Shown: positions 4,659 to 34,642 of the stretch, one piece after another | Position numbering within the stretch: the first letter of the stretch is position 1 | Layout of the letters: each line of letters starts with the position of its first letter | Origin: Pseudomonas sp. GM78 | GTDB lineage: Bacteria; Pseudomonadota; Gammaproteobacteria; Pseudomonadales; Pseudomonadaceae | Length of the DNA: 64,000 nucleotides | Reading direction: 5' to 3' | Assembly (NCBI RefSeq): GCF_000282475.1 | Contig: NZ_AKJF01000069.1 | Coordinates: forward strand, 1-64,000 | The notes under the pieces: model-generated | Told to the model about the DNA's origin: nothing | The model's input: the letters and a program-made list of their open reading frames with translations, nothing else | Databases searched by the model: none | Position numbers and translations under genes: made by a program

Positions 4659-4687
4659 AACGTACAGAAATCAGTACAGGTTGACAA
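4659..4687 (-). promoter_or_regulatory. Promoter and operator of yefM-yoeB
   Basis: Reading the minus strand, TTGTCA (4682-4687) and TACGTT (4659-4664) are 17 bp apart, a plausible sigma-70 promoter. Between them lie two TGTAC units (in 4661-4679). The YefM operator of E. coli is built on TGTACA cores, so this is the likely autorepression site. Confidence 0.6.
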
Positions 4688-4814
4688 GGCGATAGCTCCG
4701 AATGGTCGTTATGCAGTTGGCGCATCAACGCTTCTCCTGAGTATCGTCGAAATCTCCTCGGGACGTTTCCGAGAACGCTGTAGTCCTTATCTGATGAGAA
4801 GCCGTGAAGATAAA

Positions 4815-5309: not shown

Positions 5310-5325
5310 GAGCGACACCGATCAA

Positions 5326-5417
5326 CTGTAGGAGTGAGCCTGCTCGCGATGGCTGCGTAACATTCAACTAATAGGCTGGCTGATATACCGCTATCGCGAG
5401 CAGGCTCACTCCTACAG
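5326..5417. repeat. REPIN (inverted pair of REP sequences)
   Basis: Two REPs of the GTAGGAGTGAGCCTGCTCGCGAT type face each other with a 40-bp loop, giving an almost perfect inverted repeat. The right half of the loop (GCTGGCTGATATACCGCT) is nearly identical to that of the REPIN at 40909-41006. It lies upstream of the kinase-like gene and downstream of the PhoD-like gene. Confidence 0.9.
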
Positions 5418-5434
5418 GTTTTTAGTCCAGCCCA

Positions 5435-7354
5435 TTAAGCATCATCTTCAGGCGCCACCATTCGCGTCTTCGGCGAGCCATTGGCGTTGTGCTGAAAAAT
5501 ATCCCGTGGCTGCCCTTGTTCATTGAAGTACACCTGGCCGATCCCCGCCGAATTCCACAGCCGTTCGCCCGCTTCAGCATGTTCGGGCACGTGCGGCACG
5601 ATGCGCATGCGCCGGCGCTTGGTCAGCCAGTTCAACGGCGAACGCGGTGAATACAGCCAGCGATTGAGGCGGTCGAACCACTCCAGCAGGGTTGGCGGAA
5701 ATTCGTTCTTGATCCCGCTGCTGGTGATCTGCCAGATGCGCGGGCCGGCCTTGCGGTGGCGGATCAGCACTTCGTAGACGAAGGAGTAATGCACATCGCC
5801 CGACAGCACCACGTAGTTACCCGGCGTGCGCGAGTGGCGGAAAATGTTCAGGATCACCTGGGCCGCGCCGCGATGGGCCATCCAGTTCTCGGCGTCTACC
5901 AGCAGTGGATAACCCAGCCAGCTGAACACCCGTTGTACGGTTTCGATCAGCTTGACGCCGAAGATCGGCGCCGGCGACACGATGATCGCCGAGGGGTGAT
6001 CCAGCAGTTCCTGCTGCAGTTCGCTGAGGGCTTCCCAGTCCAGCAGGCCCGACGGTTGCTTGAGGGTCATCTCGCTGCGCCAGCGCCGGGTGCGGGTGTC
6101 GAGCACCACCATGGCCGGCGTGGTGGGCAGCACGTAGTGCCAGTGCTGGAAGCGCAGCAGCTCATTGATCAGGTCGTCCTGGACATCGCTGTCGAGGTAG
6201 CAATCGTCGCCGGTGGCGCTGAGCGAACGGGTTTTTTCCAGTACGGCGCCGAAGGCATCCGGGTTGTTGCCCCAGCCCTGGCACAGCATGTAGGCAAGCA
6301 GCGCATTGCCGATGATGCGCCGGGAAAACGGATGGCCGTAGGCCGTTTCCTCCCATTGAGCGGAAAGGTTCCAGTCGTCGGTAATGTCGTGGTCATCGAA
6401 AATCATCAACGTCGGCACGTGCGCCAGGGCTCGGGCGACCTTGTCCAGGCCGGCCTTGAACGCGTCGATGCGCGTCTGCTCCAGGGCATAACGCTCGCGC
6501 CGTTCCTTGATCAGTTTCGGCGGTTTTGGCGCGATCAGGGTCCAGGGCGTCGGTGACCAGACCAGCAGGTACATGGCCATCACTTCGGCGAAGGTCACCA
6601 GGTGATTGTCGGCACTGCTGCTGGTGAAAATCGGCTTGCGCGCGCCACCGAAAAAACGCTCGCGCAGGGTTTCGTTGCTTTGCAGCGCCGGCAACAGGTC
6701 CGCGCGGTGGTAGTAACAGGCGGCGTGCCCGTAAAGCTCGGCGCTGTCGCTGACCACGGCGCCCTCCAGATGCTCACCGAACAACCCCAGCCGTTCGATC
6801 AAGGCATGGATCGCCCGCAGGGTCGGCCCGGCGACATCGTCGGCGTAGACCTGATCGCCGCTCATCATCAACAACGCCGGACGGTCAGTGGCCGGGTGGT
6901 CTTGCGCCAACAGCTCATCGACGCACAGCAGCCCGTCGGTCGCCGGGTGATGGGGCTTGCGGCACGAGCCGTGCAGCAACTGCTCGATGCGGCTGCGCAG
7001 GACAAAATTCGGTGCAGTTGCATCGCCGTACAACAGATGCGGCGCCCAGGTGGCGATGCCGGTGCCGTCATCAATCAGCAGGTCGTACTCGATCAATTCA
7101 TCGCAGGGCAGGGCAGCGTCCAGCGCTACATCGATCAGGTGCACGAACGCGTGGGTACCCACGGCGATCACCGTGCATTGCCTGGCATCGAGACGAATAT
7201 CGCCCATGCCCTGCAAGCGCAGCGTCAGCTCCAGCGCTCGCGAACCCACCAGCCACAGCACCAGCCGCGTGGGTTCCAGGCGCCGTAATATCGGGCCGGC
7301 CAGCACAGGGGGCAGGGATTGAGGGTCGTCGGGTAATGGCAGCGCTTGGGACAT
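5435..7354 (-). CDS. PhoD-like metallophosphatase family protein
   Basis: A 639-residue protein with the dimetal phosphoesterase motifs of the PhoD group in order: MSGDQVYADD (about residue 165), IFDDHDITDDWN (about 320) and LSGDVHYSF (about 515). These supply metal ligands and the catalytic site of calcineurin-like enzymes. There is no signal peptide, unlike classical secreted PhoD alkaline phosphatases, so it is probably cytoplasmic; its substrate is unknown. The N-terminal 110 residues form a beta-rich domain seen in this Pseudomonas subfamily. It stands alone, flanked by a REPIN downstream and divergent from a small exported-protein gene. Confidence 0.85.
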   Translation of the reverse strand: MSQALPLPDDPQSLPPVLAGPILRRLEPTRLVLWLVGSRALELTLRLQGMGDIRLDARQCTVIAVGTHAFVHLIDVALDAALPCDELIEYDLLIDDGTGIATWAPHLLYGDATAPNFVLRSRIEQLLHGSCRKPHHPATDGLLCVDELLAQDHPATDRPALLMMSGDQVYADDVAGPTLRAIHALIERLGLFGEHLEGAVVSDSAELYGHAACYYHRADLLPALQSNETLRERFFGGARKPIFTSSSADNHLVTFAEVMAMYLLVWSPTPWTLIAPKPPKLIKERRERYALEQTRIDAFKAGLDKVARALAHVPTLMIFDDHDITDDWNLSAQWEETAYGHPFSRRIIGNALLAYMLCQGWGNNPDAFGAVLEKTRSLSATGDDCYLDSDVQDDLINELLRFQHWHYVLPTTPAMVVLDTRTRRWRSEMTLKQPSGLLDWEALSELQQELLDHPSAIIVSPAPIFGVKLIETVQRVFSWLGYPLLVDAENWMAHRGAAQVILNIFRHSRTPGNYVVLSGDVHYSFVYEVLIRHRKAGPRIWQITSSGIKNEFPPTLLEWFDRLNRWLYSPRSPLNWLTKRRRMRIVPHVPEHAEAGERLWNSAGIGQVYFNEQGQPRDIFQHNANGSPKTRMVAPEDDA

Positions 7355-8675: not shown

Positions 8676-8897
8676 CTAAGCCTCCCAGCCCGCCCCACTG
8701 ACCGCCTCTTGCGCCAGCGGGTGCAAGTCCGCGCCCTGATGCGCCGTCTGCCAGGCCAGCAACTCCTTGCGCATACCCGGCGTCCAGTACATCTGCAGAT
8801 GATTACGCACACCGAGTACCCCCAGTTGCCGGTCCGGCTCGCTGGCGAAGTACTGGGCGATCTGGTTGGCCATCTTGATCAGGTTTTCAGTACTCAT
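8676..8897 (-). CDS. fdsD: Formate dehydrogenase delta subunit FdsD
   Basis: A 73-residue protein with the FdsD pattern: LIKMANQIAQYF at the start, then EPDRQL, VRNHLQMYW and PGMRKEL. FdsD is a small subunit of soluble NAD-linked molybdenum formate dehydrogenases; in Rhodobacter and Cupriavidus types it helps maturation or stability. It overlaps the end of fdsA by 4 bp (ATGA), so translation is coupled, and it is the last gene of the operon. Confidence 0.92.
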   Translation of the reverse strand: MSTENLIKMANQIAQYFASEPDRQLGVLGVRNHLQMYWTPGMRKELLAWQTAHQGADLHPLAQEAVSGAGWEA

Positions 8898-11776
8898 CGG
8901 CGCACCTCCGCTTTATCGCCACGGGCCTGACGGCGTTCCTTGAGCAAACGGTGCTGTTCGTCGGTGAATTCCTGGAAGCGTTTTTGCCACTCCGAAGGGT
9001 GGTACACGCGGCTGACCTCCACGGCGGTGACCTTGTACTCCGGACAGTTGGTGGCCCAGTCGGAGTTGTCGGTGGTAATCACGTTGGCCCCCGATTCCGG
9101 GAAGTGGAAGGTGGTGTACACCACGCCCGGCGCAACCCGCTCGGTGACCCGCGCACGCAGCACGGTCTGCCCGGCGCGGCTGCCGATGCCGACCCAATCG
9201 CCTTCGTTGATGCCACGGCTCTCGGCGTCGGTCGGGTGGATTTCCAGGCGGTCTTCATCGTGCCAGGCGACGTTCTCGGTACGCCGGGTCTGGGCGCCGA
9301 CGTTGTATTGGCTGAGGATGCGCCCGGTGGTCAGCAGCAGCGGATAGCGACTGTTGACCTTCTCCTCGGTGGGCACATAGCCGGTGAGCATGAAACGCCC
9401 CTTGCCGCGCACGAACTGCTCGATGTGCATGGTCGGCGTGCCGTCCGGTGCCTCGGCGTTGCACGGCCATTGCAGGCTGCCGTGGCGCTCCAGTTCGGCG
9501 TAGCTGACGTTGGTGAAGGTCGGCGTGAGGCTGGCGATTTCATCCATGATTTCCGATGGGTGCTTGTAGTTCATCGGGTAGCCCAAGGCGTTGGCCAGGG
9601 CCACCGTGCCTTCCCAGTCGGCCTTGCCGCCCAGAGGGTCCATGACCTTGCGTACCCGCGAGATGCGCCGCTCGGCGTTGGTGAAGGTGCCGTCCTTCTC
9701 CAGGAACGAAGCGCCCGGCAGGAACACGTGGGCGAACTTGGCGGTTTCGTTGAGGAAAATGTCCTGCACCACCACGCATTCCATGGCCGACAGGGCCGCG
9801 GTGACGTGCTGGGTATTCGGGTCGCTTTGGGCGATGTCTTCGCCCTGGCAGTACAGGCCCTTGAAACTGCCGGCCAGCGCCGACTCGAACATGTTGGGAA
9901 TACGCAGGCCCGGGTCGGGTTGCAGGGTGACGTTCCACGCCTGTTCAAACTGCGTGCGCACCACTTCGTTGGAGATGTGCCGGTAGCCGGGCAACTCGTG
10001 GGGGAAGGAGCCCATGTCGCAGGAGCCCTGCACGTTGTTCTGCCCCCGCAGCGGGTTCACGCCCACGCCTTCGCGGCCGATGTTGCCGGTGGCCATGGCC
10101 AGGTTGGCGATGCCCATCACCGCGGTGCTGCCCTGGCTGTGCTCGGTGACGCCCAGGCCGTAGTAGATCGCGGCGTTGCCGCCGGTGGCGTACAGGCGAG
10201 CGGCGGCGCGGATGTCGGCAGGGTCTACCCCGCAGACAGGGGCAAGGGCTTCCGGCGAGTTTTCCGCACGGCTGACGAACTCGCTCCAGCGGGCGAAATC
10301 GTTGCCCTCGCAACGGGCGTCGATGAATGGCTGGTCTTGCAGGCCTTCGGTGATGATCACATGGGCCAGGGCGTTGAGCATGGCGACGTTGGTGCCGGGG
10401 CGCAGGGCCAGGTGATATTCGGCGCGGGCGTGCACCGAGTCCACCAGATCGATGCGTCGTGGGTCGATGACGATCAGCCGCGCGCCTTCACGCAGGCGGC
10501 GTTTGAGCTGCGAGGCGAACACCGGGTGCGCGTCGCTGGGGTTGGCGCCCATCACCAGGATCACGTCGGCCTGCATCACCGAGTCGAAACTCTGGGTGCC
10601 GGCGGACTCGCCCAGGGTTTGTTTCAAGCCATAACCGGTCGGCGAGTGGCAGACCCGCGCACAGGTGTCGACGTTGTTGTTACCGAACGCGGCGCGCACC
10701 AGTTTCTGCACCAGATAAGTTTCTTCGTTGGTGCAGCGACTGGAGGTGATGCCACCGATGGAGTCGCGGCCGTACTTTTGCTGCAAACGACGGAATTCGC
10801 TGGCGGCGTAGGTCACCGCTTCATCCCAGCTGACCTCCTGCCACGGGTCGTTGATGTGCTTGCGGATCATCGGCTTGGTGATGCGATCCGGGTGGGTGGC
10901 GTAGCCCCAGGCAAAGCGCCCCTTGACGCAGGAGTGGCCGTGGTTGGCCTGGCCGTTCTTGTCCGGAACCATGCGCACCAGTTGGTCGCCTTTCATCTCG
11001 GCGCGGAACGAGCAGCCCACGCCGCAATAGGCGCAAGTGGTGATTACGCTGCGTTCCGGCTGGCCCAGCTCGACCACGCTTTTTTCCATCAGCGTCGCGG
11101 TAGGGCAGGCCTGCACACAGGCGCCGCAGGACACGCATTCCGAGTCGAGGAAGTTATCACCGCCAGCCGCCGCCACCCGGGATTCAAAACCACGCCCGGT
11201 GATGGTCAGGGCAAAGGTGCCCTGGGTTTCTTCGCAGGCGCGCACGCAACGGTTGCAGACGATGCACTTGCTCGGGTCGTAGTCGAAATAAGGGTTGGAG
11301 GTGTCTTTCACATCCTCCAGATGGTTCTCGCCTTCATAGCCGTAGCGCACCTCGCGCAGGCCGACCTGGCCGGCGACAGTTTGCAGCTCGCAGTTGCCGT
11401 TGGCCGAGCAGGTCAGGCAGTCCAGCGGGTGATCGGAGATGTACAGCTCCATGACATTGCGGCGCAGGGTCGCGAGCTTCGGCGTCTGGGTGTGCACGCT
11501 CATGCCTTCGGTGACCGGCGTGGTGCAGGACGCGGGATAACCGCGCATGCCGTCGATCTCCACCAGGCACATGCGGCAGGAGCCAAAGGCTTCCAGGCTG
11601 TCGGTGGCACAGAGTTTCGGAATGGTGGTGCCCAGCAGCGCCGCGGCGCGCATCACCGAGGTGCCTTCGGGCACGCTGATGCTGCGACCGTCGATGTTCA
11701 GGGTGACTTGTACCTGGCTCTCGCGGGCCGGCGTGCCCAGATCGATATCGGTTTTCGGATCGAATACAGTGATCAT
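8894..11776 (-). CDS. fdsA: NAD-dependent formate dehydrogenase alpha (molybdopterin) subunit
   Basis: This 960-residue subunit oxidises formate to CO2 at a molybdenum bis-MGD site. Domains in order: a 2Fe-2S region (C56, C67, C70, C84), a His/Cys 4Fe-4S site (H116, C120, C123, C129), two ferredoxin-type clusters (C171/174/177/181 and C214/217/220/224), the 4Fe-4S of the catalytic domain (C248, C251, C255, C283), the Mo-ligand cysteine C376 in ARVCHSPT, and a C-terminal MGD-binding domain from about 840. The N-terminal cluster set is like NuoG of complex I. It sits between fdsB and fdsD with 4-bp overlaps on both sides. No fdhD-type sulfurtransferase gene is in the window. Confidence 0.97.
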   Translation of the reverse strand: MITVFDPKTDIDLGTPARESQVQVTLNIDGRSISVPEGTSVMRAAALLGTTIPKLCATDSLEAFGSCRMCLVEIDGMRGYPASCTTPVTEGMSVHTQTPKLATLRRNVMELYISDHPLDCLTCSANGNCELQTVAGQVGLREVRYGYEGENHLEDVKDTSNPYFDYDPSKCIVCNRCVRACEETQGTFALTITGRGFESRVAAAGGDNFLDSECVSCGACVQACPTATLMEKSVVELGQPERSVITTCAYCGVGCSFRAEMKGDQLVRMVPDKNGQANHGHSCVKGRFAWGYATHPDRITKPMIRKHINDPWQEVSWDEAVTYAASEFRRLQQKYGRDSIGGITSSRCTNEETYLVQKLVRAAFGNNNVDTCARVCHSPTGYGLKQTLGESAGTQSFDSVMQADVILVMGANPSDAHPVFASQLKRRLREGARLIVIDPRRIDLVDSVHARAEYHLALRPGTNVAMLNALAHVIITEGLQDQPFIDARCEGNDFARWSEFVSRAENSPEALAPVCGVDPADIRAAARLYATGGNAAIYYGLGVTEHSQGSTAVMGIANLAMATGNIGREGVGVNPLRGQNNVQGSCDMGSFPHELPGYRHISNEVVRTQFEQAWNVTLQPDPGLRIPNMFESALAGSFKGLYCQGEDIAQSDPNTQHVTAALSAMECVVVQDIFLNETAKFAHVFLPGASFLEKDGTFTNAERRISRVRKVMDPLGGKADWEGTVALANALGYPMNYKHPSEIMDEIASLTPTFTNVSYAELERHGSLQWPCNAEAPDGTPTMHIEQFVRGKGRFMLTGYVPTEEKVNSRYPLLLTTGRILSQYNVGAQTRRTENVAWHDEDRLEIHPTDAESRGINEGDWVGIGSRAGQTVLRARVTERVAPGVVYTTFHFPESGANVITTDNSDWATNCPEYKVTAVEVSRVYHPSEWQKRFQEFTDEQHRLLKERRQARGDKAEVRR

Positions 11777-21206: not shown

Positions 21207-21230
21207 TGGTGCCCGAGGGAGACTCGAACT
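21207..21230. repeat. Distal attachment site (copy of tRNA-Leu 3' end)
   Basis: TGGTGCCCGAGGGAGACTCGAACT is identical to 34558-34582 except for one missing C in the CCCC run. The missing base would break the acceptor stem, so this copy is an attachment-site remnant rather than part of a working tRNA. Confidence 0.85.
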
Positions 21231-21825: not shown

Positions 21826-24180
21826 CTACTGGTTTGGTAAAAACTCAGCGTAGATAAAGGATATTAGCTTGCGCGCTATGTTTCGTTGATCTTCAATGTT
21901 GTTACTTTGCCAAATATGATGAGTGGGATTCAAAACTATTCTGAATTGATGTGCTGTGTTCGCTACCGTATCTGAAATTATCTTGCATGATCGTAATTTA
22001 TCAATGCGGTCTGAGAGGTTGAATTCGGTAATTTTGTTCTTGGCTATTTGTTCCGCAAATCTGAGTGATAACTCTATTTCAAAAAATACACGTAAATCCG
22101 CAGCGCTATGGTTGTCGGTTCCGCCCGCGATGAACTCGAAAATCTTGGTCCTACGCTTTTCATGTTCTGTTGAAATGAAAGTGTCAACGTCCGGCAATTC
22201 AAGGTCTGACGATCGCTCGGTCTTAGTTATAGCGATGAGTTTTATTGGAAGTTGATTTCTGTAGACATTAAGGAACGCAGCAATGCCATATTCGAAATGA
22301 CTTAATATTAATATTTGGCGGACACTTTTTGACAGCTCTACTATTTCCATGTGTGCTGAAGTCATCCGATTACAGTCGAAGGATGTAATGGGGTCATCTA
22401 GTATCACGATAGAGTTCTCCATTTTCCCTGGCTCGCTCTCGATTACTCCGGCCCAAAATACCGATAGAGCTAGTGCCCTTCTATCTGATTCGCTAAATAC
22501 CTGTTCAAGGTTTCTTTCTGAAATATCATGGCCCCGATATTTAACCTTTAGATAAAATATCGGCGTATGTCCTTTGTTGTCTTCGCCCTTGGCTAACTCA
22601 AAATCCTCGCTGCCGAATTTTTCAAAATACTCATTTATTTTTCGAAAGTAACGAGTTAGAAAATCACTTTGCTCTGCCACCAATTCTAAATTAAGAGTTG
22701 GTATTTCTTTCGAAAGAAACTTGAGTCTAGTTAAAATTGAGCTGTACTCTTTGCATTGTGGCTCGAGTTTGATTCTAGAGATTTTCGTGTTTATTGTTTT
22801 GCCCAAATCGACAATTTCGTTCATTCCGCGTTCAAGGTCGTCAATGTTGACTGTCGCTTTAAACTGCGCGATGGCGGTATTAGCATGTTCGACAAAGCTG
22901 TCGTAGTTGTGGCACAGCGTAGAAAGCCGTTGCTCAATCTGAATCAACCCAAGGTCATCTGCGGCAGGTAGCTCTAGGTTGGGGGTCTCTCTCTTTCTAG
23001 CCACTGTAGCGGATAATGAATCAAAGAAAATTGGCCACTGAGAGTCCCACTCCTTTATGGCGGCTGTGATTTCATCCTCCACGCCCTCGATAAACTTTAT
23101 CACGTTTGAAAAATAATCTGAGTTTTCTAATTCAGGGTAGCTCGCGAGTGGCTCTTTGTTGCGGGTTATTAATGATGCTAATTGGGCAGTGTTTGGCTTT
23201 TTGATTGCGGAAATGCTGGTATTTAAGGAGTCATTTATTCTTCTGGAATTTGTCTCAAAGGAAGTATCAAAGCTGTGCTCGTAGATGTCTATAAGTTCAA
23301 GTGCGTCTAGGGATAGGTGCTGTCCACAAAACAGGCAATCATCACCTTTACGGAAATATAAACCTTGCCGTATCCAGGCCTCGGCGCCTCGATCACCTTT
23401 AAAAGTATGGGCTATATGATCTGCTACAGCTTTCCGGGCGGTTTCTTGATGCGACTTCATTGATTCATTTAGCGTCGCGTTTATCGCCTTTAGACCCTGG
23501 CTAAAATCTTTTTGCCAGTTTGTCGTCTCTAGCTCTTTTCGAGTGCTGATTTTCTGAATGCTTCCTCGCTGTTTCTTCAGTGCATCGTAATCCGAGCGCA
23601 AAATTGCTACTTTTTCTTCCAGCGTCTCGATGGGCTCTAAAATTTCAAGTTCTAAAAAAGAGGGAAGGTCAGTTATCTCTCTGAAAGCATGAGCTGTAAT
23701 CTTCCCAAGGTCACGTGTGAGCTCGTTTTTTAATTTGTTTTTCTCGGTAATGATTTTGGTTTTGGCTACGCCTTGTTCGCCTAGGATGAAGGCGCTAAAT
23801 GCTTCTTTTGTCGCTCGCGTAAATTGGCGAGAGGAGAATAAATTCTTGTGGTAAAAGCCATCATCAAAAACATGAAGACTGAGTTCGCTAGGAAAATTTC
23901 TGCTCCACTCGCCATTCGCATATCTGACAATTGTTTCGGGTTGCGACTCTCCTGCGAAACTCAGCTCGATTTTCTGAGGTGTAGAATCCGAGGGTATGGT
24001 TGTCCTGGCTTTGATAATCGATGTGTCAGAGGTGCGTAGGCTCGAGAATATGTCGCCCAGAGTGGATTTGCCGTAGGTATTCAGGCCGTAGATAAAAGTA
24101 ATGGGGCCAAACTCGATCTTTGGAGGCGCGCACTCTCGGAATCGTCCTACATTTTGAATTAATCGAATTCGTTTTAACAT
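21826..24180 (-). CDS. AAA_13/SMC-like ATPase with zinc hook, RloC/PrrC-like
   Basis: A 784-residue protein with an ABC/SMC-type split ATPase: Walker A-like GLNTYGKST (residues 32-40), signature-like FSESDRRALALSVFWA (about 575), Walker B IVILDDPITSFD (about 605) and an H-loop ILSHFE. Coiled coils from about 140-260 and 290-530 flank a CxxC hook (C282, C285 in DCLFCGQ), as in Rad50 and RloC. The C-terminal part has an R-x3-E pair (R697, E701) and downstream histidines (H744, H754, H755), reminiscent of the PrrC/RloC anticodon-nuclease triad. RloC cuts tRNA during phage infection; here that function is inference. The gene is AT-rich, the last cargo gene of the island. Confidence 0.8.
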   Translation of the reverse strand: MLKRIRLIQNVGRFRECAPPKIEFGPITFIYGLNTYGKSTLGDIFSSLRTSDTSIIKARTTIPSDSTPQKIELSFAGESQPETIVRYANGEWSRNFPSELSLHVFDDGFYHKNLFSSRQFTRATKEAFSAFILGEQGVAKTKIITEKNKLKNELTRDLGKITAHAFREITDLPSFLELEILEPIETLEEKVAILRSDYDALKKQRGSIQKISTRKELETTNWQKDFSQGLKAINATLNESMKSHQETARKAVADHIAHTFKGDRGAEAWIRQGLYFRKGDDCLFCGQHLSLDALELIDIYEHSFDTSFETNSRRINDSLNTSISAIKKPNTAQLASLITRNKEPLASYPELENSDYFSNVIKFIEGVEDEITAAIKEWDSQWPIFFDSLSATVARKRETPNLELPAADDLGLIQIEQRLSTLCHNYDSFVEHANTAIAQFKATVNIDDLERGMNEIVDLGKTINTKISRIKLEPQCKEYSSILTRLKFLSKEIPTLNLELVAEQSDFLTRYFRKINEYFEKFGSEDFELAKGEDNKGHTPIFYLKVKYRGHDISERNLEQVFSESDRRALALSVFWAGVIESEPGKMENSIVILDDPITSFDCNRMTSAHMEIVELSKSVRQILILSHFEYGIAAFLNVYRNQLPIKLIAITKTERSSDLELPDVDTFISTEHEKRRTKIFEFIAGGTDNHSAADLRVFFEIELSLRFAEQIAKNKITEFNLSDRIDKLRSCKIISDTVANTAHQFRIVLNPTHHIWQSNNIEDQRNIARKLISFIYAEFLPNQ

Positions 24181-25539: not shown

Positions 25540-26787
25540 TTACGGGGTTGGGGTCAGGCTGACCAGGCGCATCGATGTCGGGGCATACACCGCCAGACCT
25601 GCCCGCATCTCGGCCAAGATCGTGACCAGGTTGCGCCGGAAGTTATTGCCATCGTGTCGGCTGGCTTCCACTGTGACTTCCTGCCGATCGAGCAGAGCAG
25701 TAGTCGAAGTATCCAGCACCAGGGCGCCGAGCTCCGGCATCCCCATCGTCACCACGACGGGAGTACCCCACAAGCTTGGCGGCGCCGGGTCTCGCGGGGT
25801 ACCGATCACGTACTGGCCATCACCACCATCAGCGGTATCAGCCCGCTCACTCTCGATGGCGAACCAATCGCGTGGATTCATCACGATCACATTGGGGTTC
25901 CAGCCAAGAGCTTTGAGATCAGTGAGGGCCAGCCCAACGCGATCGACTGGCTTGCCGGTGGTGATGCCGGCGGCTGGGGCCTGGGCGATGAAGCCCAAGA
26001 TCTCGCCATCACCGCCGTCGCCCGCGAGCAGCTCTTGCTCGAGCTTCTGCCGTACACCGACGCTCATCAGCAGGCCGACCTGTTGCTCGAGCTGGCTGTT
26101 GTCGTTGAGGACTTGCAGGCTCGCCGGGATCCAGGTGGCGATGGTTGCGATCTCTGCTCGGGAAAGCTTGGTAGGCAATTGGCCCTCTGACTTCTCGTCG
26201 CCTTCCTTTGTCTGGTAAGCGGCTCCGCTCAGATAGCCATCGAGCTGCACATACTCGTAAGTAGAACCTTCGACGGGCACGATCGGCAGTACGTCCAGGA
26301 GGCTGAGTCGAGGTTGTGGAATCCCTTGGATACCAGGTGCCCGAACCGGCGCCGTAGGATAGCTGGTAGAGCCTGCGGTCCCCTTGCCCGGGTTTGTCAC
26401 CGCAGCACGGACGCCGGCCGTGACAGTAATGCGCCCGGTGGACTTTTGGCCCGCTCTGATGTTGCCGAGCCCTTCAGTCTCGGTTATTGCAGCGCTGACG
26501 ACGTTGATTTCTTTTGCGTGCGGATCGGTGACTTGCTTCAGTCCGCCGGCAACGGCACGTTGTTCCAGCTCCAGCAGACGGGCGTGGAATTCGCCCTGCT
26601 TCTCGCCGTGGCCCTCGATGGTTTCCTTGTGTGCTTTGAGCGCGGTTACCACTTGGCCGATGTCGTGATCCATTTCTGTAATCTCTTGGGTGATTGTTTG
26701 CAGCACCTGCCGACTCTCCGTCGGTTGCTGATTCGCGGCCAGGGAAGCTCGCAGCTTGTCCCAGCTTTTCTGGTGTGTGGTGGTCAT
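25540..26787 (-). CDS. HK97-fold phage major capsid protein
   Basis: A 415-residue HK97-family capsid protein. Residues 1 to about 100 are helical and glutamine-rich (the delta or scaffold-like domain of such proteins), followed by the shell domain with family features such as LLDVLPIVPVEGSTYEYVQ, ATIATWIPASLQVL, VIVMNPRDWFAIE and FRRNLVTILAEMRAGLAVYAP. It would form hexamers and pentamers of a procapsid. No prohead protease, portal or terminase gene is seen beside it, which is unusual: the satellite may combine its own shell protein with helper head and packaging proteins, or the other genes were lost. Confidence 0.9.
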   Translation of the reverse strand: MTTTHQKSWDKLRASLAANQQPTESRQVLQTITQEITEMDHDIGQVVTALKAHKETIEGHGEKQGEFHARLLELEQRAVAGGLKQVTDPHAKEINVVSAAITETEGLGNIRAGQKSTGRITVTAGVRAAVTNPGKGTAGSTSYPTAPVRAPGIQGIPQPRLSLLDVLPIVPVEGSTYEYVQLDGYLSGAAYQTKEGDEKSEGQLPTKLSRAEIATIATWIPASLQVLNDNSQLEQQVGLLMSVGVRQKLEQELLAGDGGDGEILGFIAQAPAAGITTGKPVDRVGLALTDLKALGWNPNVIVMNPRDWFAIESERADTADGGDGQYVIGTPRDPAPPSLWGTPVVVTMGMPELGALVLDTSTTALLDRQEVTVEASRHDGNNFRRNLVTILAEMRAGLAVYAPTSMRLVSLTPTP

Positions 26788-27478: not shown

Positions 27479-28768
27479 TTACATACTCCCCTGTAGTGGA
27501 ATGCTAATTTCGCTGAGCGCCGTGTTTTCTATGGTCTGTAGCGGTTCTCTCGAATTTTTCTGTCTCACGTTTGTCTCGGCGCCAACGGCACTCAGGCCGT
27601 AGTCATCGAGACGGTCATGCCACTTCTCCAATGCCTGGCGCTTTAGGGTTTCGGCGGTGGTGTGGATGTAAGTCGCGTCCATGTTCTTCAGGGCGTGGTT
27701 CACCAGCATCTCGCCCACCAGGTAATCAATGCCCAGATCCATCCACGCGGTTCGAGCCACCTTGCGCAGGTCATGGCTTGTCCACTGGTGATGACTTAGG
27801 GAGGCGAACACGGCGGTGGCTGTGGTGGCCGTCATGGCGCTGCGGCGAATGCCGGGGAACACGTACGCGCCTTGGTAGCCGCTCGCTTGTTGGCGAGCCC
27901 GGTACCGCTGCAGCAGGGCGCAGACTTGCCCAGTCAACGGCAGCAGGTGTTCCGCTTTGGTCTTCGTATCGGCCTGCGGTATGAACCACTGACCGGTGCC
28001 TAGGTTGACGTTGCGCCACAGCGCCATACGGGTTTCTCCGAGCCGCGTGCCGTGGCACAGCATCATCAGTGCCAACATGGCCTCTGTGGGCCGGGAGTCG
28101 AATGCCTCTGACACCTTGGCCAGTACTTCCGGAAGATCGTCACCGCGCAAGCGTGAGGGCTTGGGCCTGATGCGCGCGGAAACGAAGTCGCTGAATTTCA
28201 GCCCTGTCATCGGATTGAGGCGAAGCAGTCCGAGGCGGTGGGCCTGGCGCATTGCTACGGCCAGCACGTTGTAGACCAGGCGTACGAACGACAGCGCATA
28301 CCGCTCCTGCAGTGGCCACATCAGCAGGTTATCGAGTGACGATTTATTCAGATCGGCGAGTGGCAGATTGGCAAGCCTCGGCACCAGGTGACAGGACAGC
28401 GCCGACTTTGCCCCGGCCTTTCGCTTGGCGGAAAGACTACGGTCGCGCAGCATCCGGTCGGTGTACCAGAGCAGCAGGTCGCCCGTCGTCACCCAGGCGT
28501 TTTCGGTTGAGGACGCGTCCGGATCGACAGCCCTGCGCACTAGGATCGCGGGAAGTGCCGACTGCATCAGCTTGGCGTTGATTCCGGGATAGTTGCCGGC
28601 CTTGCCCCACTTGCCGCGCACCACCACATGCCAGGAGCCCTTGGTACGATCGGACGTGGAATAGCGAAAGCGCAGCTCAGGAAACCGTGGGTCGCGCAAC
28701 TGGCGCACCTGGCCAGCTGCCTGCTTGCGGATCTCGGCATCGGTAAGTGTGACGTGCAGCGTGGTCAT
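27479..28768 (-). CDS. Second tyrosine recombinase / integrase-like protein
   Basis: A 429-residue tyrosine recombinase, different from the tRNA-proximal integrase. Catalytic residues are visible in order: Arg in CHGTRLGE, His-x-x-Arg in SHDLRKVAR, the VNHALKNMD block and the nucleophile in DATYIHT. ATG 28768 follows GAGG at eight bases. It lies in the middle of the island, far from either attachment site, next to the capsid-side genes. It could be the integrase of a formerly separate element, or an internal invertase or resolvase. Its 5' region has several overlapping hairpins (28798-28874). Confidence 0.88.
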   Translation of the reverse strand: MTTLHVTLTDAEIRKQAAGQVRQLRDPRFPELRFRYSTSDRTKGSWHVVVRGKWGKAGNYPGINAKLMQSALPAILVRRAVDPDASSTENAWVTTGDLLLWYTDRMLRDRSLSAKRKAGAKSALSCHLVPRLANLPLADLNKSSLDNLLMWPLQERYALSFVRLVYNVLAVAMRQAHRLGLLRLNPMTGLKFSDFVSARIRPKPSRLRGDDLPEVLAKVSEAFDSRPTEAMLALMMLCHGTRLGETRMALWRNVNLGTGQWFIPQADTKTKAEHLLPLTGQVCALLQRYRARQQASGYQGAYVFPGIRRSAMTATTATAVFASLSHHQWTSHDLRKVARTAWMDLGIDYLVGEMLVNHALKNMDATYIHTTAETLKRQALEKWHDRLDDYGLSAVGAETNVRQKNSREPLQTIENTALSEISIPLQGSM

Positions 28769-28797
28769 GATTCCAGCCTCAAGATAATTCCTCAAAT

Positions 28798-28874
28798 TGA
28801 TGTGAGAAGATGCGCTCACATCAGAGCGCATCCCTCAAACCCACAGCGGGGTGTCGTTTCGCGCAACGACACCC
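28798..28874 (-). promoter_or_regulatory. Overlapping hairpins upstream of the second recombinase
   Basis: Three inverted repeats: TGATGTGAG...CTCACATCA (28798-28823), TGCGCTC-ACATCA-GAGCGCA (28811-28830) and GGGTGTCGTT-TCGCGC-AACGACACCC (28849-28874). The first two share bases and cannot form together. No T-run follows, so they are not simple terminators. They could be an operator plus a leader switch. Confidence 0.45.
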
Positions 28875-29101: not shown

Positions 29102-29392
29102 CTATACAAGGTCGGCCTGCGGCCAGCGCCAACGGATTGCATCAATGGCTTCTGCTCGCGTCATGGGTTCCCCGATCATCGTGCAGAGCGGCTTGCCGTT
29201 GCTCATGACCTGCCAATGACAGCGGCGCTCAATCCCATCATTCGATGCCAACTCAGCCAGCAGTTCGAGCCGGTGGTTTTTGATGTAGGCGCGCACCTGG
29301 TCATTGAGCTTGCTTGCGGGCGAGACCCGAACGCGCTTTCCGCTCAATTTTGCCGCGAACCCGAGATTGAGCAGGTAAGCGAGGGCGGCCAT
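29102..29392 (-). CDS. Small protein with TubC-docking-like N-terminus, end of replication operon
   Basis: A 96-residue protein. The first 45 residues (LAYLLNLGFAAKLSGKRVRV then KLNDQVRAYIKNHRLELL) resemble the small TubC-type docking fold common in proteins beside satellite and phage primases; the C-terminal part (MTRAEAIDAIRWRWPQA) is conserved-looking but unassigned. The ATG shares one base with the stop of the helicase gene (TGATG), so it is translationally coupled to it and probably assists replication. Confidence 0.65.
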   Translation of the reverse strand: MAALAYLLNLGFAAKLSGKRVRVSPASKLNDQVRAYIKNHRLELLAELASNDGIERRCHWQVMSNGKPLCTMIGEPMTRAEAIDAIRWRWPQADLV

Positions 29393-30690
29393 CAAATCTC
29401 CTCCGAATCGGCATCGTCCAAGGTCGGGAGGTGCGTGCCATCAGGGAGTGGACCTTTGAGGTATTGGCTCCATTCGTGCCCTTTTTCCTCGTTCGTGCCC
29501 ACGTTATTTACTGGGCACGAATGAGATTCCGAGGGCACGAATGGAGGAAACGGCACGAATGGGCCTTCTGCTTGGGGCAGTGACCAGAAGGACTTCACTT
29601 CCTTTTTGTTGCCCGTCCTGATCGCCACCACAGACAACTTTTCCCGCGCCCGCCGAATCTGCTTTTCGGTGTAGCCGTTGCGCTTCATCAAGGCTTTGGC
29701 TTCGTTACTTTCGAGCGGGTTGTCTTTCAATATTCGGTGCAGGCAATCGGCAGGGTCATCCGGGTCTGCCGTCTCGTCGTCACCCGCTGTTTCAACTTCC
29801 CCCAGAATTTCGCGGGCACTCCCTTGGATAGCAGCACCCCACAGCACACGGGTGGTTTCGATTCCGCCACTGATATCGACTGGCTCGATGGTGTAGGTCA
29901 CGCCGCCTTCATCGGTACCGATGTTGGATTTAGCCCGCGCCAATACACGCTGGTCTGAGTCTTCTTGCTTAGCGGCCACCAGCACTGTCCGGGCCAGCGC
30001 GGAGAAAGCTTGCGAACCAATGACGCGATCAGTCGGAGAGGAACCCGCACCGCCCTTGGCGAAGTGACTGATACCGACCACGGCGCAGAGATTGGCCTCG
30101 GCGAAGTCCACCACACCTTGCAAGCCGCGGCGCACGTCATTGGCTTTGTGCATGTCCCCCTTCACAGCACTGACCACCGGATCGAGCATCAGCAATGACA
30201 CACCGCCCAGCTCGCGCACGGTGTCGCGTAGTAAACCGATGTCGTTCGATGGATCGAAGGGGTCAGCTTCACCCTGAGCGTTGAGGCGCCCTTGAATGAC
30301 GTGCACCCGCGATAAGTCAGCACCGGCAGCGATCAGGCGCGGCACCAGCGTGTCGGCTGGGTCATCCTCACTCGACCAAATGAGCGCGTTGCCGCGCTCT
30401 GGGCAAATCTCACCATCTGGCCAGCGTCCGCCTGTGGTTATGGTCGCGATCAAGCTAATGAGCAGCGTGGTCTTCCCGGTACCACCAGCGCCAGCAAGGA
30501 TGTGCAACTTGCCCTTGGCCAACCAGCCAGGCCACAGCCAGCGAATAGCCACCGGTTTGATATTGACGGCGCTGACTGCGTTTACTTTCCATACGGTAGG
30601 CGCGATGGGCACTGCTTTGAGACTGGTTCCCTGTGGGGGCGGGCTGATCGGATCTTTCCACTGATCTGCAAATCGATCTTTATTGTTCAT
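29392..30690 (-). CDS. RepA-like hexameric ATPase / helicase of the satellite
   Basis: A 432-residue AAA_25 (RecA-fold) protein related to plasmid RepA helicases. Residues 60-75 hold Walker A (AGAGGTGKTT); Walker B-like LLMLDPV follows near 165 and VVGISHFAKG near 205. The C-terminal 130 residues form a winged-helix-like segment (NEAKALMKRNGYTEKQIRRA) and a repetitive tail with PFVPFPPFVP. The DNA coding for that tail is also an iteron array (29471-29563), so origin and gene overlap. It starts in an ATGA overlap with the CHC2 gene; together the pair would give primase/helicase activity for autonomous satellite replication. Confidence 0.88.
   Translation of the reverse strand: MNNKDRFADQWKDPISPPPQGTSLKAVPIAPTVWKVNAVSAVNIKPVAIRWLWPGWLAKGKLHILAGAGGTGKTTLLISLIATITTGGRWPDGEICPERGNALIWSSEDDPADTLVPRLIAAGADLSRVHVIQGRLNAQGEADPFDPSNDIGLLRDTVRELGGVSLLMLDPVVSAVKGDMHKANDVRRGLQGVVDFAEANLCAVVGISHFAKGGAGSSPTDRVIGSQAFSALARTVLVAAKQEDSDQRVLARAKSNIGTDEGGVTYTIEPVDISGGIETTRVLWGAAIQGSAREILGEVETAGDDETADPDDPADCLHRILKDNPLESNEAKALMKRNGYTEKQIRRAREKLSVVAIRTGNKKEVKSFWSLPQAEGPFVPFPPFVPSESHSCPVNNVGTNEEKGHEWSQYLKGPLPDGTHLPTLDDADSEEI
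29471..29563. repeat. Iteron array A inside the helicase gene
   Basis: Five copies of the core GGCACGAA(T/C): inverted at 29471-29481 and 29491-29502, direct at 29512-29524, 29533-29544 and 29552-29563, about 20 bp apart. The same inverted-inverted-direct-direct-direct layout occurs at 32098-32188. It is a candidate replication-initiator binding site. Confidence 0.65.
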
Positions 30691-31097
30691 TGGACCCCCA
30701 GACGCTGTTTGGCGAGGTTGAAGCGTTGCAGATCGTCCTCGGACAATTTCCCTGTATCGAGCAGCGATTTGCCGATTAGGTAAACTGCGCGCTCATGTTC
30801 AATGGCCTGCTTACTTGGCCCGCGACGTGGTTGCTTTGAGCCAGGAAACAAATCGCGTAACTCCAGACCGATAGCCGAAACGATATTTTGAGCGGTACAC
30901 CCGGCCCAGCACTTGAGTAAAACAGTACCGTCCGAAGTTTCGCTAATAGCCAAACTTGGATTTTTGTCATCATGTGCAGGGCAGCAGGCCTTCCACTTTT
31001 GCGCACCAGCAGGTTTAACTTTATCGAGACAACTAAGGACTTTATCCAGACAAGCCGATCCCGTCAGCGCAACTGGGCGCTGTTGATAATTCGTCAT
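30687..31097 (-). CDS. CHC2-type zinc-finger primase-like protein
   Basis: A 136-residue protein with the primase zinc-ribbon signature CCPAHDDKNPSLAI ... LLKCWAGC (residues 38-67), where the Cys, His and the CxxGC pair bind zinc and contact template DNA. The length covers only the zinc domain plus a helical tail; no TOPRIM domain is present, so it probably works with the ATPase encoded immediately downstream. Its stop overlaps that gene by 4 bp (ATGA). Confidence 0.85.
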   Translation of the reverse strand: MTNYQQRPVALTGSACLDKVLSCLDKVKPAGAQKWKACCPAHDDKNPSLAISETSDGTVLLKCWAGCTAQNIVSAIGLELRDLFPGSKQPRRGPSKQAIEHERAVYLIGKSLLDTGKLSEDDLQRFNLAKQRLGVQ

Positions 31098-31814: not shown

Positions 31815-31965
31815 GGATGTAGCTCCGTTTACTTCACTGGAGCCACCGCGTTCTGCCGCCAAGCAGATAAGGGTGGCGAGTTGCATAGGATTGGCGGACC
31901 GGGGTAAACGGAGCCCGGCGCACCCTAAGGTGCTCCTACACAACCCGCCATAACGCAATGATGCG

Positions 31966-32060
31966 GGCACAAAAAAAGCGCCTGCAATCGTGATGGGGGC
32001 GCTGATGCGCCGTCTACTGATCGACCCGCCAAGGTCGGTCGCTGATTTGGCAGCGACAGG
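31966..32060 (-). ncRNA. Conserved two-hairpin element, copy 2 (C4 antisense RNA-like)
   Basis: Stems AGCGCC...GGCGCT (31977-32003) and GTCGCTG-ATTTGG-CAGCGAC (32038-32057) match copy 1 at 15258-15338 in stem sequence and order, while loops and linker differ. A run of A precedes the first stem and GCAAG follows in both. It lies between the AlpA gene and the first gene of the replication operon, a suitable place for an RNA that controls that operon. Confidence 0.5.
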
Positions 32061-32097
32061 GGGACGATACAGTGGGTAATTTTTCGGTGCAAGTCTT

Positions 32098-32188
32098 ACT
32101 CGTGCCCTTTTTTTCCACTCGTGCCCACGCATAAGGGTGGGCACGAGAGAGAAAAGTGGGCACGAGTAAGAAAAAAGGGCATGAGTGG
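32098..32188. repeat. Iteron array B between AlpA and the replication operon
   Basis: Five copies of GGGCACGAG(T/A): inverted at 32098-32107 and 32116-32128, direct at 32137-32148, 32156-32167 and 32177-32188 (the last as GGGCATGAG), about 20 bp apart. The middle pair forms an 11-bp stem. The layout matches array A. It is probably the main origin, being noncoding and beside AT-rich tracts. Confidence 0.7.
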
Positions 32189-32242: not shown

Positions 32243-32452
32243 TTACGCCACCTCGCCACGGCATTCGGCGATGCGCTCAGCTACCCAAGTATCGACCTCG
32301 GATTGCACCCAAACGACATGGCCTGGTGCCAGTTTCACCTGAGCAGGAAACGTACCGGCCTTGATGCGGCGATACAGTTCCGACTGACTCAGGGATGTGA
32401 TCGACAGGACTTCTTTGATGCGGATAAAGCGGCGGGGTTCTTGAGTAGTCAT
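32243..32452 (-). CDS. alpA: AlpA-family regulator
   Basis: A 69-residue AlpA/excisionase-type protein: RFIRIKEVLSITSLSQSELYRRIKAGTFP then KLAPGHVVWVQSEVDTWVAERI (the first block spans residues 8-36). AlpA proteins activate integrase or satellite genes and are a hallmark of P4-like and Gram-negative PICI elements. ATG 32452 is preceded by AGGA and lies in the family start position. The origin-like iterons lie directly downstream of its stop. Confidence 0.92.
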   Translation of the reverse strand: MTTQEPRRFIRIKEVLSITSLSQSELYRRIKAGTFPAQVKLAPGHVVWVQSEVDTWVAERIAECRGEVA

Positions 32453-32574
32453 TCCTAGCGCCTCCTTGGGCGTTCTGGGGATGACCAATATTGTTCCGGC
32501 TTGGCTGTATAAAAAATCAGTAAATCGCGACGTTAAAATAGTTTTCCATCACGTCAAATACCATTTCCGATGCG

Positions 32575-33162
32575 CTAGCCAGGTTTTTTGGAGCGACCTG
32601 GCTTCATGGCATGACTTGGCGCAACTGGCCTGATCCACTTTCTTACGGCATCCGGGTCTTTAGGTAGGAAGCGTTCGAGGCCGTTGGCATGCAGCTCCGC
32701 GTAAACAAGTTGGGCCATATCTCCGATCCTGATTCCTCCCTCGAGATCATCAGCCCATTTCCGTTGTGCGACTTCTCTAGCTTGCGCCGCCGCTTCGGCT
32801 AGAGCCTTGTTTCTCGCATTGATCCCCTTGAATGAAGCCATTTCTCGGTTAATCGCTTGGGAGCTGGTCTGGATGACTGTTTCAAGAAGTGCAGTTGCCA
32901 GGGTCATCATTGCGATGTTAATTCCTTTGGCAATTTCGTCACTTTCAGCAGAAATTGTTTCCAGAAGCTCAAACGCACAATCAATATTCCGGTGAAACTC
33001 AGGTGATACGGGGCTGCCTTGTTTTCCGTGTAACCTGAATATGTCAATTATTTCGCTCATAGGAATTAAACCCTTGCTCTCTAGAGAGCTGGAGAGTTTT
33101 GAAATAACTTCATCAATGTGAATACCAATTCTGCGCTGAGTCGGAGTGTCAAGCTCTTCCAT
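32575..33162 (-). CDS. Uncharacterised protein coupled to the integrase gene
   Basis: A 195-residue, mostly helical soluble protein with a basic C-terminus (KPGRSKKPG). ATG 33162 shares a base with the integrase stop (TAATG) and follows AGGAGAG, so it is cotranscribed with int. The central part (ARNKALAEAAAQAREVAQRKWADDL) looks like a coiled helix. Proteins of this kind accompany P4-type integrases in Pseudomonas islands; no role is known. It might assist excision or be cargo. Confidence 0.65.
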   Translation of the reverse strand: MEELDTPTQRRIGIHIDEVISKLSSSLESKGLIPMSEIIDIFRLHGKQGSPVSPEFHRNIDCAFELLETISAESDEIAKGINIAMMTLATALLETVIQTSSQAINREMASFKGINARNKALAEAAAQAREVAQRKWADDLEGGIRIGDMAQLVYAELHANGLERFLPKDPDAVRKWIRPVAPSHAMKPGRSKKPG

Positions 33163-34370
33163 TAATTCGCTCTCCTGATGGAAGCCACATTCGCGCCAGT
33201 GCAGATCGCGTCTATGGCGTCGGCCCACTCCTGCATCATCTTGCGTCGCTGTGGTAAGTAATGGGCATGGTTGTATGTGTCGCGGATTTCGTCTTGGTCG
33301 CCGTGGGCAAGTTGGCGCTCGATCCAGTCCCGGTTATAGCCTCGGCTGTTCAGTTCGGTACTTAGCAGGTGGCGGAATCCGTGGCCGGTCTGCCGACCCT
33401 CATAGCCGATCTGGTGTAGGGCCTTGTTCACTGTGTTCTCCGACTGGGGGCGTTCGCGGTTATTGCGCCCAGGGAAGGCGATGGGATAACTGCCGGTAAT
33501 TTCCTTGAGCTCCAGCAGCGTGGCCACAGCTTGGCGGGGCAAGGGCACGATGTGCGGTCGACGGGCTTTCATCCGGGCGGCGGGGATTGTCCAGGTGGCT
33601 GACTCAAGGTCGAACTCCTCCCACGGCGCAAGCCGCAACTCACCAGGGCGCACGCCAGTGAGCAGTAGCAAGCGCACGGCCATACGGGTCATCACGTCGC
33701 ACTTGGCGGCATCCAGCTTGCTCAGCAAGGTAGGGATCTCCGATAGCGGGACGTGCGGGTGGTTTTTCGTCCTCGGTGCGATAGCGGCGACTACGTCCAG
33801 GTCTGTGGCTGGATTGGAGTCCACCGACCCCTTGGCCAGGCCATAGCGGAATATCTGGCTCAGCCACTGGCGAACCTTTCCGGCGACGTTGAGTGCGCCG
33901 CGCTTTTCCACCTGGCGCACTAGGGCGACCAGGTCGGGCCGAGTGATCTCTTGCAGTGGACGCTGGCCAATGGCCGAGAGAATGTCAGCCTCAAGGTATT
34001 GCAGCGCCTTGGCGGCAGTGGAGGGCGCCCAACGGGGAGAGTTGTAGGAGTACCACTCGCGGGCCAGCTCTTCGAAGATGTGGACGTGAGCGGCCTGGGC
34101 GCGCTTCTCGTCTTGCTTGTGCGTGGTGGGGTCGATGCCATCGGCCAGCAGGCGGCGGGCATCTTCGCGGCGCTCCCTGGCCTTGGCCAAGGTGACGGCG
34201 GGGTAAGCCCCCAATCCCATCATTTTCGCTTTACCGCCGAAACGGTAGCGGAATCGCCAGAGTTTCGAACCGTTGGGGGTGACTTCCAGGCACAGGCCCG
34301 CGGCGTCGGTCAGTCGGTAGAGTTTTTCGCGGGGCTTGGCAGTGCGAGCCGCTGTATCGGTGAGAGCCAC
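33162..34370 (-). CDS. int: P4/CP4-57-type tyrosine integrase
   Basis: A 402-residue integrase with the N-terminal DUF4102 arm-binding domain (residues 1-90, LTDAAGLCLEVTPNGSKLWR), a SAM-like core-binding domain and a C-terminal catalytic domain: Arg in TGVRPGELR, His-x-x-Arg in HGFRHLLST, His in LAHGDQDEIR and Tyr in DTYNHAHY. It starts at GTG 34370 and reads away from the tRNA-Leu 3' end, the standard arrangement for tRNA-targeted P4-like islands. It should integrate and excise the element at the 25-bp tRNA identity segment. Confidence 0.95.
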   Translation of the reverse strand: MALTDTAARTAKPREKLYRLTDAAGLCLEVTPNGSKLWRFRYRFGGKAKMMGLGAYPAVTLAKARERREDARRLLADGIDPTTHKQDEKRAQAAHVHIFEELAREWYSYNSPRWAPSTAAKALQYLEADILSAIGQRPLQEITRPDLVALVRQVEKRGALNVAGKVRQWLSQIFRYGLAKGSVDSNPATDLDVVAAIAPRTKNHPHVPLSEIPTLLSKLDAAKCDVMTRMAVRLLLLTGVRPGELRLAPWEEFDLESATWTIPAARMKARRPHIVPLPRQAVATLLELKEITGSYPIAFPGRNNRERPQSENTVNKALHQIGYEGRQTGHGFRHLLSTELNSRGYNRDWIERQLAHGDQDEIRDTYNHAHYLPQRRKMMQEWADAIDAICTGANVASIRRAN

Positions 34371-34557: not shown

Positions 34558-34642
34558 TGGTGCCCCGAGGGAGACTCGAACTCCCACTCCTTTCGAAAAC
34601 GGATTTTGAATCCGCCGCGTCTACCAATTCCGCCATCAGGGC
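34558..34642 (-). tRNA. tRNA-Leu(CAA)
   Basis: The 85-nt minus-strand sequence from GCCCTGATGGCGG to CACCA folds as a class II tRNA: acceptor GCCCTGA with TCGGGGC, anticodon stem GCGGA/TCCGT with loop TTCAAAA (anticodon CAA, leucine), a long variable arm, and T arm GGGAG-TTCGAGT-CTCCC. CCA is encoded. The 3' 25 nt are the island attachment site. Confidence 0.95.

What the first reader, a model, noticed from the sequence alone, without database searches (positions are those of the whole stretch)
32098..32188. Five-copy iteron array between alpA and the replication operon: candidate satellite origin
Seen: GGGCACGAG cores in the order inverted, inverted, direct, direct, direct, about 20 bp apart, in a noncoding gap next to A/T tracts. 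Known: P4 satellites start replication at ori and a second site, crr, both made of iterons bound by their own primase/helicase. Inference: this is the origin, bound by the RepA-like protein (29392) or its partner.
Basis: partly seen in the sequence, partly recalled or inferred. Interest (0 to 1): 0.75.

Follow-up and report, generated by a model that had tools for sequence, protein, structure and literature searches.

The report
Two matched replication-protein arrays in satellite
A bacterial mobile island carries two matching sets of short DNA repeats, one in a gap and one hidden inside the end of its replication gene, and the repeats' spelling changes in step with the DNA-reading part of that gene's protein, so they are very probably its docking sites for copying the island.

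Summary
The array is real: five GGGCACGAG-type sites at 32099-32185, order - - + + +, steps 19/21/19/19. It is half of the story. A second array (B, 29473-29559), same order and nearly the same steps, lies inside the 3' coding end of the RepA-like gene (29392-30690). Both recur in related islands. Base 9 of the iteron (G, A or C) differs between islands and corresponds, 24 of 24 for array A, with residues 342 and 359 of RepA's C-terminal winged helix (start of recognition helix, and wing, in an AlphaFold model). No variable column of the RepA ATPase domain or of eight other tested island genes does so, including the primase-like gene between array A and repA. Array A sits upstream of a C4-antisense-RNA leader, recalling phage P4's ori and crr in layout, though RepA and the element are not P4-like. 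Array B is more widespread: 70 of 87 distinct RepA relatives have a repeat set in the coding 3' end, and two type-I islands have intact B but no A. Best reading: A and B are the two RepA docking sites of a bipartite origin, B the core. RepA binding is strongly inferred; origin activity is untested. New variant of a known kind.

The parts
32099..32185 (.). Array A: five iterons, 32099-32107(-), 32118-32126(-), 32139-32147(+), 32158-32166(+), 32177-32185(+, one mismatch); base 9 = G
   Evidence: a cluster of at least 3 sites at this place in 24 of 27 type-I elements
29473..29559 (.). Array B: five iterons, 29473-29481(-), 29492-29500(-), 29513-29521(+), 29533-29541(+), 29551-29559(+, one mismatch), inside the repA coding sequence; base 9 = A
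29392..30690 (-). repA: AAA_25 helicase with RSF1010-RepA-like fold, a C-terminal winged helix and a tail encoded by array B
   Evidence: Pfam AAA_25 5.5e-34; TMt 0.65-0.67 to RSF1010 RepA, highest of the 50 rows shown
29572..29760 (-). Coding region of the RepA winged helix (residues 311-373), inferred iteron reader; residue 342 opens the third helix, 359 lies in the wing
   Evidence: AlphaFold models; covariation
30687..31097 (-). Zn-ribbon primase-like protein, upstream neighbour of repA
   Evidence: Pfam Zn_ribbon_DnaG 8.7e-5, below its cut-off; PHROG DNA primase 1.3e-16
31869..31955 (-). C4 antisense RNA (RF01695)
   Evidence: 82.2 bits, gathering 45
32018..32070 (-). c4-a1b1, target of C4 antisense RNA (RF03163)
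   Evidence: 51.3 bits, gathering 46.7
32064..32092 (-). Candidate leader promoter TTGCAC-N17-TATCGT between array A and the C4 target
   Evidence: TTGCnn-N17-TATCGT in 14 of 23 elements examined; not found by the consensus scan
32243..32488 (-). alpA (excisionase/activator family)
   Evidence: Pfam Phage_AlpA 7.7e-17
33162..34370 (-). Tyrosine integrase next to tRNA-Leu (34558-34642)
34564..34582 (+). 19-bp repeat at the tRNA-Leu 3' end, candidate att site
21212..21230 (+). Other copy of the 19-bp repeat, candidate far end of the 13.4-kb island

Best explanation
Arrays A and B are the two docking sites of the island's own replication protein. RepA, an RSF1010-RepA-like helicase with a C-terminal winged helix, reads each ~9-bp iteron with the recognition helix and wing; several copies assemble on each array about two helical turns apart. 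B, in the last ~200 coding nt of repA, is the core origin shared by most of the family; A, about 1.4 kb upstream of repA at the C4-controlled leader, is a second cis site, so that initiation works as in phage P4, which has two iteron clusters (ori and crr). Shown: both arrays, their conservation, their linkage to RepA and the covariation with its winged helix. Inferred: binding, helicase loading, A-B looping, start of replication. In this particular island A matches the type of its RepA and B does not, so A may carry more of the load here.
For: The pattern was met only beside RepA relatives: 8 of 396 genus genomes, 0 reversed-control matches. Array-A base 9 corresponds one to one with residue 342 (E/Q/A) and 359 (T/S/E) as G/C/A in 24 of 24 elements. 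Control: none of about 113 variable ATPase columns and 1190 variable columns of eight other genes determines the base. In the three elements where A and B disagree (window, L050, L068), A follows the winged helix. The ATPase tree needs 7 base changes, the winged-helix tree 2; L050 and L053 have 97% identical ATPase domains but differ together in the two residues and in the array. A further element found only by its array (L134) follows residue 359. Array-B copies are read in different codon frames yet mostly share base 9. 70 of 87 distinct RepA ORFs have 4 or more copies of a 9-mer (1 mismatch) in the last 200 coding nt against 21 of 337 control windows. Distant L178, with other iterons, has matching arrays at the upstream place and the repA end and a C4 RNA. 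Layout resembles P4 ori/crr.
Against: No experiment. Tree-controlled pairs are few: 1-2 on supported branches (3-5 on all), in the same direction but unable to reach 0.05; 14 of 21 inner branches of the ATPase tree are unsupported. Two columns at the end of the ATPase part (247, 274) and one integrase column also exceed 1 bit. Residue 342 fails as predictor in four elements with base A in array B: L037, L042, L099 and L134; 359 holds there. The window's own B (base A) mismatches its G-type RepA. The fifth B site deviates (base A) in six G-type elements. No A+T-rich block directly at either array; the spacer between the inverted sets is not A+T-rich in G215 and G163 (strings). Array A was not found in L037, L042 and L099, so it is not essential to every island. 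No sequence similarity of the winged helix to P4 alpha. The 87 ORFs include close relatives; 17 of 87 show no such set.
Confidence: 0.62

Rival explanations
1. RepA binds both arrays, but array A is a regulatory site: RepA bound there controls the C4-leader promoter just downstream, so that B alone is the origin and A sets rep expression.
For: A lies upstream of a promoter-like TTGCnn-N17-TATCGT ahead of the C4 target (14 of 23 elements). In L037 and L099 no array A is found and what reads by eye as the end of an AlpA-like frame is followed almost directly by the promoter-like site (tblastn with the window's AlpA did not find it there). B is at the usual PICI origin place (PMC6092414, passages).
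Against: A does not overlap the promoter-like site, and the distance from the last iteron to the -35 varies (7, 13, 16, 18, 24, 27, 48 bp; one of 23 elements gave none), with no fixed phase. A has the site number and geometry of B, more than a simple operator needs.
Confidence: 0.25
2. The arrays act as RNA: each inverted half pairs with the other to form a long hairpin in the transcript (attenuator or antisense element), and the base-9 changes are compensatory.
For: Both fold strongly as RNA (-53.5 and -55 kcal/mol, z -10.9 and -8.6). The fifth site, outside the hairpin, deviates in base 9 in six G-type B arrays.
Against: Inverted protein sites fold this way regardless. In other arrays the fifth site does carry the element's base (window A and B, L037, L059, L060, L099). 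An RNA model does not predict covariation with a winged helix encoded 1.4 kb or more away. Rfam finds no family over the arrays and there is no terminator-like site. I did not run a pair-covariation count.
Confidence: 0.04
3. The match of A and B is only gene conversion or recent duplication between repeats; the link to the winged helix is hitch-hiking of adjacent B.
For: A and B share long exact runs in some elements (71 nt inverted in L059; 56 nt in L072).
Against: Where A and B disagree, A follows the winged helix although B is adjacent to it. The two genes between A and repA that could be tested (30687 and 31348) show only background association; 31100 was found in too few elements. An element's own B is the closest B to its A in only 6 of 22 compared; in the window the longest exact A-B run is 13 nt.
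Confidence: 0.05
4. Packaging, partition or recombination sites bound by another protein (terminase, integrase, AlpA).
For: The island carries two integrases, AlpA and an HK97 capsid gene.
Against: AlpA, second integrase and capsid columns stay under 1 bit of association with the base and the first integrase has one column at 1.06, none complete; the array tracks RepA. No terminase gene of the window was tested.
Confidence: 0.04

Closest known systems
Phage P4 ori + crr (NC_001609)
   Same: Two clusters of one iteron type in one satellite; one just 3' of the replication gene (crr 4291-4590 beside alpha 4636-6969), the other upstream near the AlpA-type gene (ori 9086-9809; ORF88 8764-9030). Binding by alpha and antisense-RNA control of the P4 leader are recalled.
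   Different: Iteron TGTTCACC, not GGGCACGA; ori lies beyond the AlpA-type gene, here A lies between alpA and the leader; crr is outside alpha, here B is inside repA; alpha is one primase-helicase, here a separate Zn-ribbon protein and an RSF1010-like RepA; no sequence similarity of the DNA-binding domain.
Gram-negative PICI origins (PMC6092414, passages seen)
   Same: Two iteron sets at the 3' end of the rep gene; int and alpA present.
   Different: The passages describe one origin 3' of the gene with an A+T-rich region between the sets; here the array is coding, the middle is short and not always A+T-rich, and a second matched array exists.
RSF1010 RepA
   Same: Helicase fold: highest target-normalised score among the 50 Foldseek rows shown.
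   Different: Here a C-terminal winged helix and a tail are added; that RSF1010 iterons are bound by RepC is recalled.
Vibrio PLE satellite RepA and iterons (PMC7145576, passages seen)
   Same: Satellite-encoded initiator with its own iterons.
   Different: RepA_N-family initiator with iterons in a non-coding region (NCR3).

Membership tests
Bipartite P4-type origin (ori + crr) | Two separate clusters of the same iteron in one element | tested here: met
   in the window the two clusters differ at base 9
Bipartite P4-type origin (ori + crr) | One cluster immediately 3' of the replication gene | tested here: inconclusive
   Array B is at the 3' end but inside the coding sequence; P4 crr is outside alpha
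Bipartite P4-type origin (ori + crr) | Same iteron sequence as P4 type 1 | tested here: not met
   GGGCACGA against TGTTCACC
Bipartite P4-type origin (ori + crr) | Both sites needed in cis for replication | not testable with these tools
   needs a replication assay
P4-like satellite family | int, psu, delta, sid, alpA, epsilon, alpha (PMC8628076, passages seen) | tested here: not met
   Of 16 island ORFs scanned in Pfam (E up to 0.01) only integrase and AlpA of this set matched; short ORFs were not scanned and the family's own models were not on hand
Gram-negative PICI | Integrase with own att site, alpA, rep module in one direction | tested here: met
   the ends rest on one 19-bp repeat pair
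Gram-negative PICI | Iteron origin immediately 3' of rep | tested here: inconclusive
   iterons at the 3' end of rep (array B), but inside the gene; origin function untested
Gram-negative PICI | A+T-rich segment between the two iteron sets | tested here: inconclusive
   Window B middle is A+T-rich over 12 nt, but not in G215 or G163 (strings); at 100-nt scale arrays have GC 0.48-0.59 and the nearest lower stretch, 32450-32599 (0.41-0.44), is 270 bp from A
Gram-negative PICI | Induction and packaging by a helper phage | not testable with these tools
   needs culture
RSF1010-type RepA helicase | RecA-like helicase fold of RepA | tested here: met
   Foldseek TMt 0.65-0.67; weak profile hit to 1g8y, 3.4e-4; hexamer not tested
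C4 antisense RNA system | C4 RNA with its a1/b1 target in the same leader | tested here: met
   transcription not tested

The most novel reading that the evidence does not exclude
A gene-embedded origin and a distant twin form one evolving unit: the last codons of a helicase gene double as its own iteron array, a second copy sits at the antisense-RNA immunity leader, and a winged-helix code (T/E/S at one wing residue, G/A/C in the iteron) is swapped between satellites together with the distant array, making isolated replication-specificity groups and tying replication start to immunity control.
Probability: 0.35. Interest if true: 0.8.

Novelty: new variant of a known kind. Interest (0 to 1): 0.62.

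Why it matters
It gives a Pseudomonas satellite-like family a concrete origin architecture and a candidate protein-DNA recognition code that can be tested with a few natural proteins and oligonucleotides. It shows a replication gene whose coding end is also a DNA docking array, a feature widespread in this helicase family. It suggests how such islands could form replication-compatibility groups, and puts replication and antisense-RNA control side by side in one leader.

Tried and rejected

Rows dropped: for residue columns, the 3 of 27 elements without array A, and columns with more than 3 gaps; identical RepA rows collapsed (57 loci, 53 distinct); gene 31100 not tested (6 elements); L052 and L073 left out of the A-B comparison (22 of 24). 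Base 9 was set by me as the majority of sites: L050, L056 and L057 have deviating sites in A, L050 and L068 have mixed B, L056's B is degenerate, and L073's B value comes from a cluster 5.1 kb downstream of repA's start.

Literature: the listings (top rows only) showed no paper on this RepA or these arrays; the library is partial, so this is no proof of absence from print. cfPICI work was seen only as listings. SaPI origin work (Ubeda et al. 2012) was seen only as a reference; its content is recalled.

Full report
OBSERVATION. The five sites are present as described: 32099(-), 32118(-), 32139(+), 32158(+), 32177(+, one mismatch). Exact GGGCACGA is found 10 times against 3.44 expected, 0 of 100 shuffles as many; with one mismatch the window as a whole shows no excess. 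Eight of the ten exact copies fall in two clusters. The second cluster, array B, 29473-29559, has the same orientation order and nearly the same steps (19, 21, 20, 18) and lies inside the 3' coding end of the RepA-like gene.

SETTING. A 19-bp repeat at the tRNA-Leu 3' end (34564-34582) recurs at 21212-21230, suggesting a 13.4-kb island with integrase, alpA, a rep operon, a second integrase, an HTH gene, an HK97 capsid gene and a candidate defence gene. That it is a phage satellite is inferred from this content. Rfam places a C4 antisense RNA at 31869-31955 and its a1/b1 target at 32018-32070, both on the minus strand, between array A and the rep operon. Among relatives, C4 was found in 8 of 9 type-I loci scanned (not L042) and in 4 of 15 RepA-bearing others (L092, L095, L178, L186). 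A promoter-like TTGCAC-N17-TATCGT lies between array A and the C4 target; TTGCnn-N17-TATCGT is the best site in 14 of 23 elements, a weaker one in 8, none in L056. In P4, by its record, crr lies just 3' of alpha and ori lies upstream near the AlpA-type gene, both with type-1 iterons, so the layout is similar, while iterons, RepA and gene content differ.

RELATIVES. RepA relatives occur in 26 of 398 genus genomes at E 0.001, many of them distant. Of 57 loci (53 distinct RepA), 27 have GGGCACGA-type clusters; 24 have array A and three do not (L037, L042, L099). In L042 array B is also degenerate and one search shows stops in that gene; in L073 no array is found in the repA end and a cluster lies 5.1 kb downstream of its start; arrays in L056 are degenerate. 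In L037 and L099 what reads by eye as the end of an AlpA-like frame is followed almost directly by the promoter-like site, so array A looks like an inserted block; the window's AlpA did not find a match there by tblastn. The cluster pattern was met in 8 of 396 genus genomes, each time beside a RepA relative, with no reversed-control match; G072, which has degenerate arrays, was missed.

COVARIATION. Base 9 of the iteron is G, A or C by element. For the 24 elements with array A (G 9, C 9, A 6), RepA residues 342 (E/A/Q) and 359 (T/E/S) correspond one to one with G/A/C. Nine residues between 306 and 368 determine the base. None of about 113 variable ATPase columns (residues 30-300; two boundary residues may be counted twice) and none of 1190 variable columns of eight other genes (11 to 23 elements each) does; residues 247 and 274 and one integrase column exceed 1 bit. 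The primase-like gene between array A and repA has mean information 0.22 and maximum 0.83 bits against a ceiling of 1.57. Array B agrees with A in 21 of 24, counting the displaced L073 cluster and degenerate L056; in the other three (window, L050, L068) A agrees with the winged helix. The three elements without A have B base A and E359; L134, found by its array alone, also has E359 and base A. Residue 342 does not predict these four. The ATPase tree needs 7 changes of base, the winged-helix tree 2, but 14 of 21 inner branches of the former are unsupported. Among 15 representatives under 95% identity, the nearest ATPase relative has a different base in 9. Supported independent pairs number only 1-2 and cannot reach significance.

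STRUCTURE. AlphaFold gives helices 313-321, 328-337, 342-352 and a wing 355-359/366-370; the domain alone gives three helices and a wing at mean pLDDT 83.6. Residue 342 opens the third (recognition) helix and 359 lies in the wing. By E-value the first Foldseek rows for the whole model are Rad51 filaments; RSF1010 RepA has the highest target-normalised score of the 50 rows shown. The C-terminal part matches general winged-helix proteins.

CODING ARRAY. In the window's array B the five iterons put base 9 on codon positions 1, 1, 3, 2 and 3, yet all carry A; in other elements most copies agree, though the fifth B site deviates in six G-type elements. This points to constraint on DNA rather than on a peptide repeat. 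Across 87 distinct RepA ORFs (close relatives included) the last 200 coding nt hold at least 4 copies of one 9-mer in 70, against 21 of 337 windows elsewhere in the same genes; at least 5 in 37 against 1 of 337. Iteron sequences differ widely. A second array outside repA's end was found in 18 of 19 type-I loci and 3 of 46 others that were long enough; of the three, L178 has it upstream of a C4 RNA, the other two lie inside the gene. Phage Phipami28 has a primase relative followed by a different 516-aa gene (annotated hypothetical; replication type is my reading), which also holds four copies of an inverted repeat word in its 3' coding end.

EVOLUTION. In 18 of 22 elements compared, A and B align best as inverted copies; exact shared runs reach 71 nt in L059 and 56 nt in L072, but only 13 nt in the window, and an element's own B is the closest B to its A in only 6 of 22. 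L059 carries two iteron types at both places. The window combines an ATPase domain nearest L068 (A-type) with a G-type winged helix and G-type array A, while its B stays A-type.

VERDICT. RepA docking is strongly inferred (my estimate 0.9); a bipartite origin with B as core and A as second site is the best reading (0.62), a leader operator for A the main rival (0.25).

Noticed in passing
window 21826-24180 (-): AAA_13 protein matching PADLOC candidate defence family PDC-S06 (1107 bits) at the far end of the island.
   Followed up: no
window 27479-28831 (-) and 25540-26787 (-): A second tyrosine integrase and an HK97 capsid gene downstream of repA; tblastn matches in 19 and 18 of 27 type-I loci.
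   Followed up: partly
L059 4683-4850 and 8067-8300: P. massiliensis island carries two different iteron types side by side at both array places, in inverted orientation; possibly an intermediate of a specificity switch.
   Followed up: partly
L142 6206-6338: Pseudomonas phage Phipami28: a different gene beside the primase relative also holds an inverted repeat set (ATCCGCGA) in its 3' coding end, with C4 RNA and its target upstream.
   Followed up: partly
window 29102-29395 (-): Small conserved ORF directly after repA, found in 25 of 27 type-I loci, no Pfam match.
   Followed up: no
window 29473-29559: The window's array B is A-type while its array A and RepA are G-type: a natural mismatch.
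   Followed up: partly
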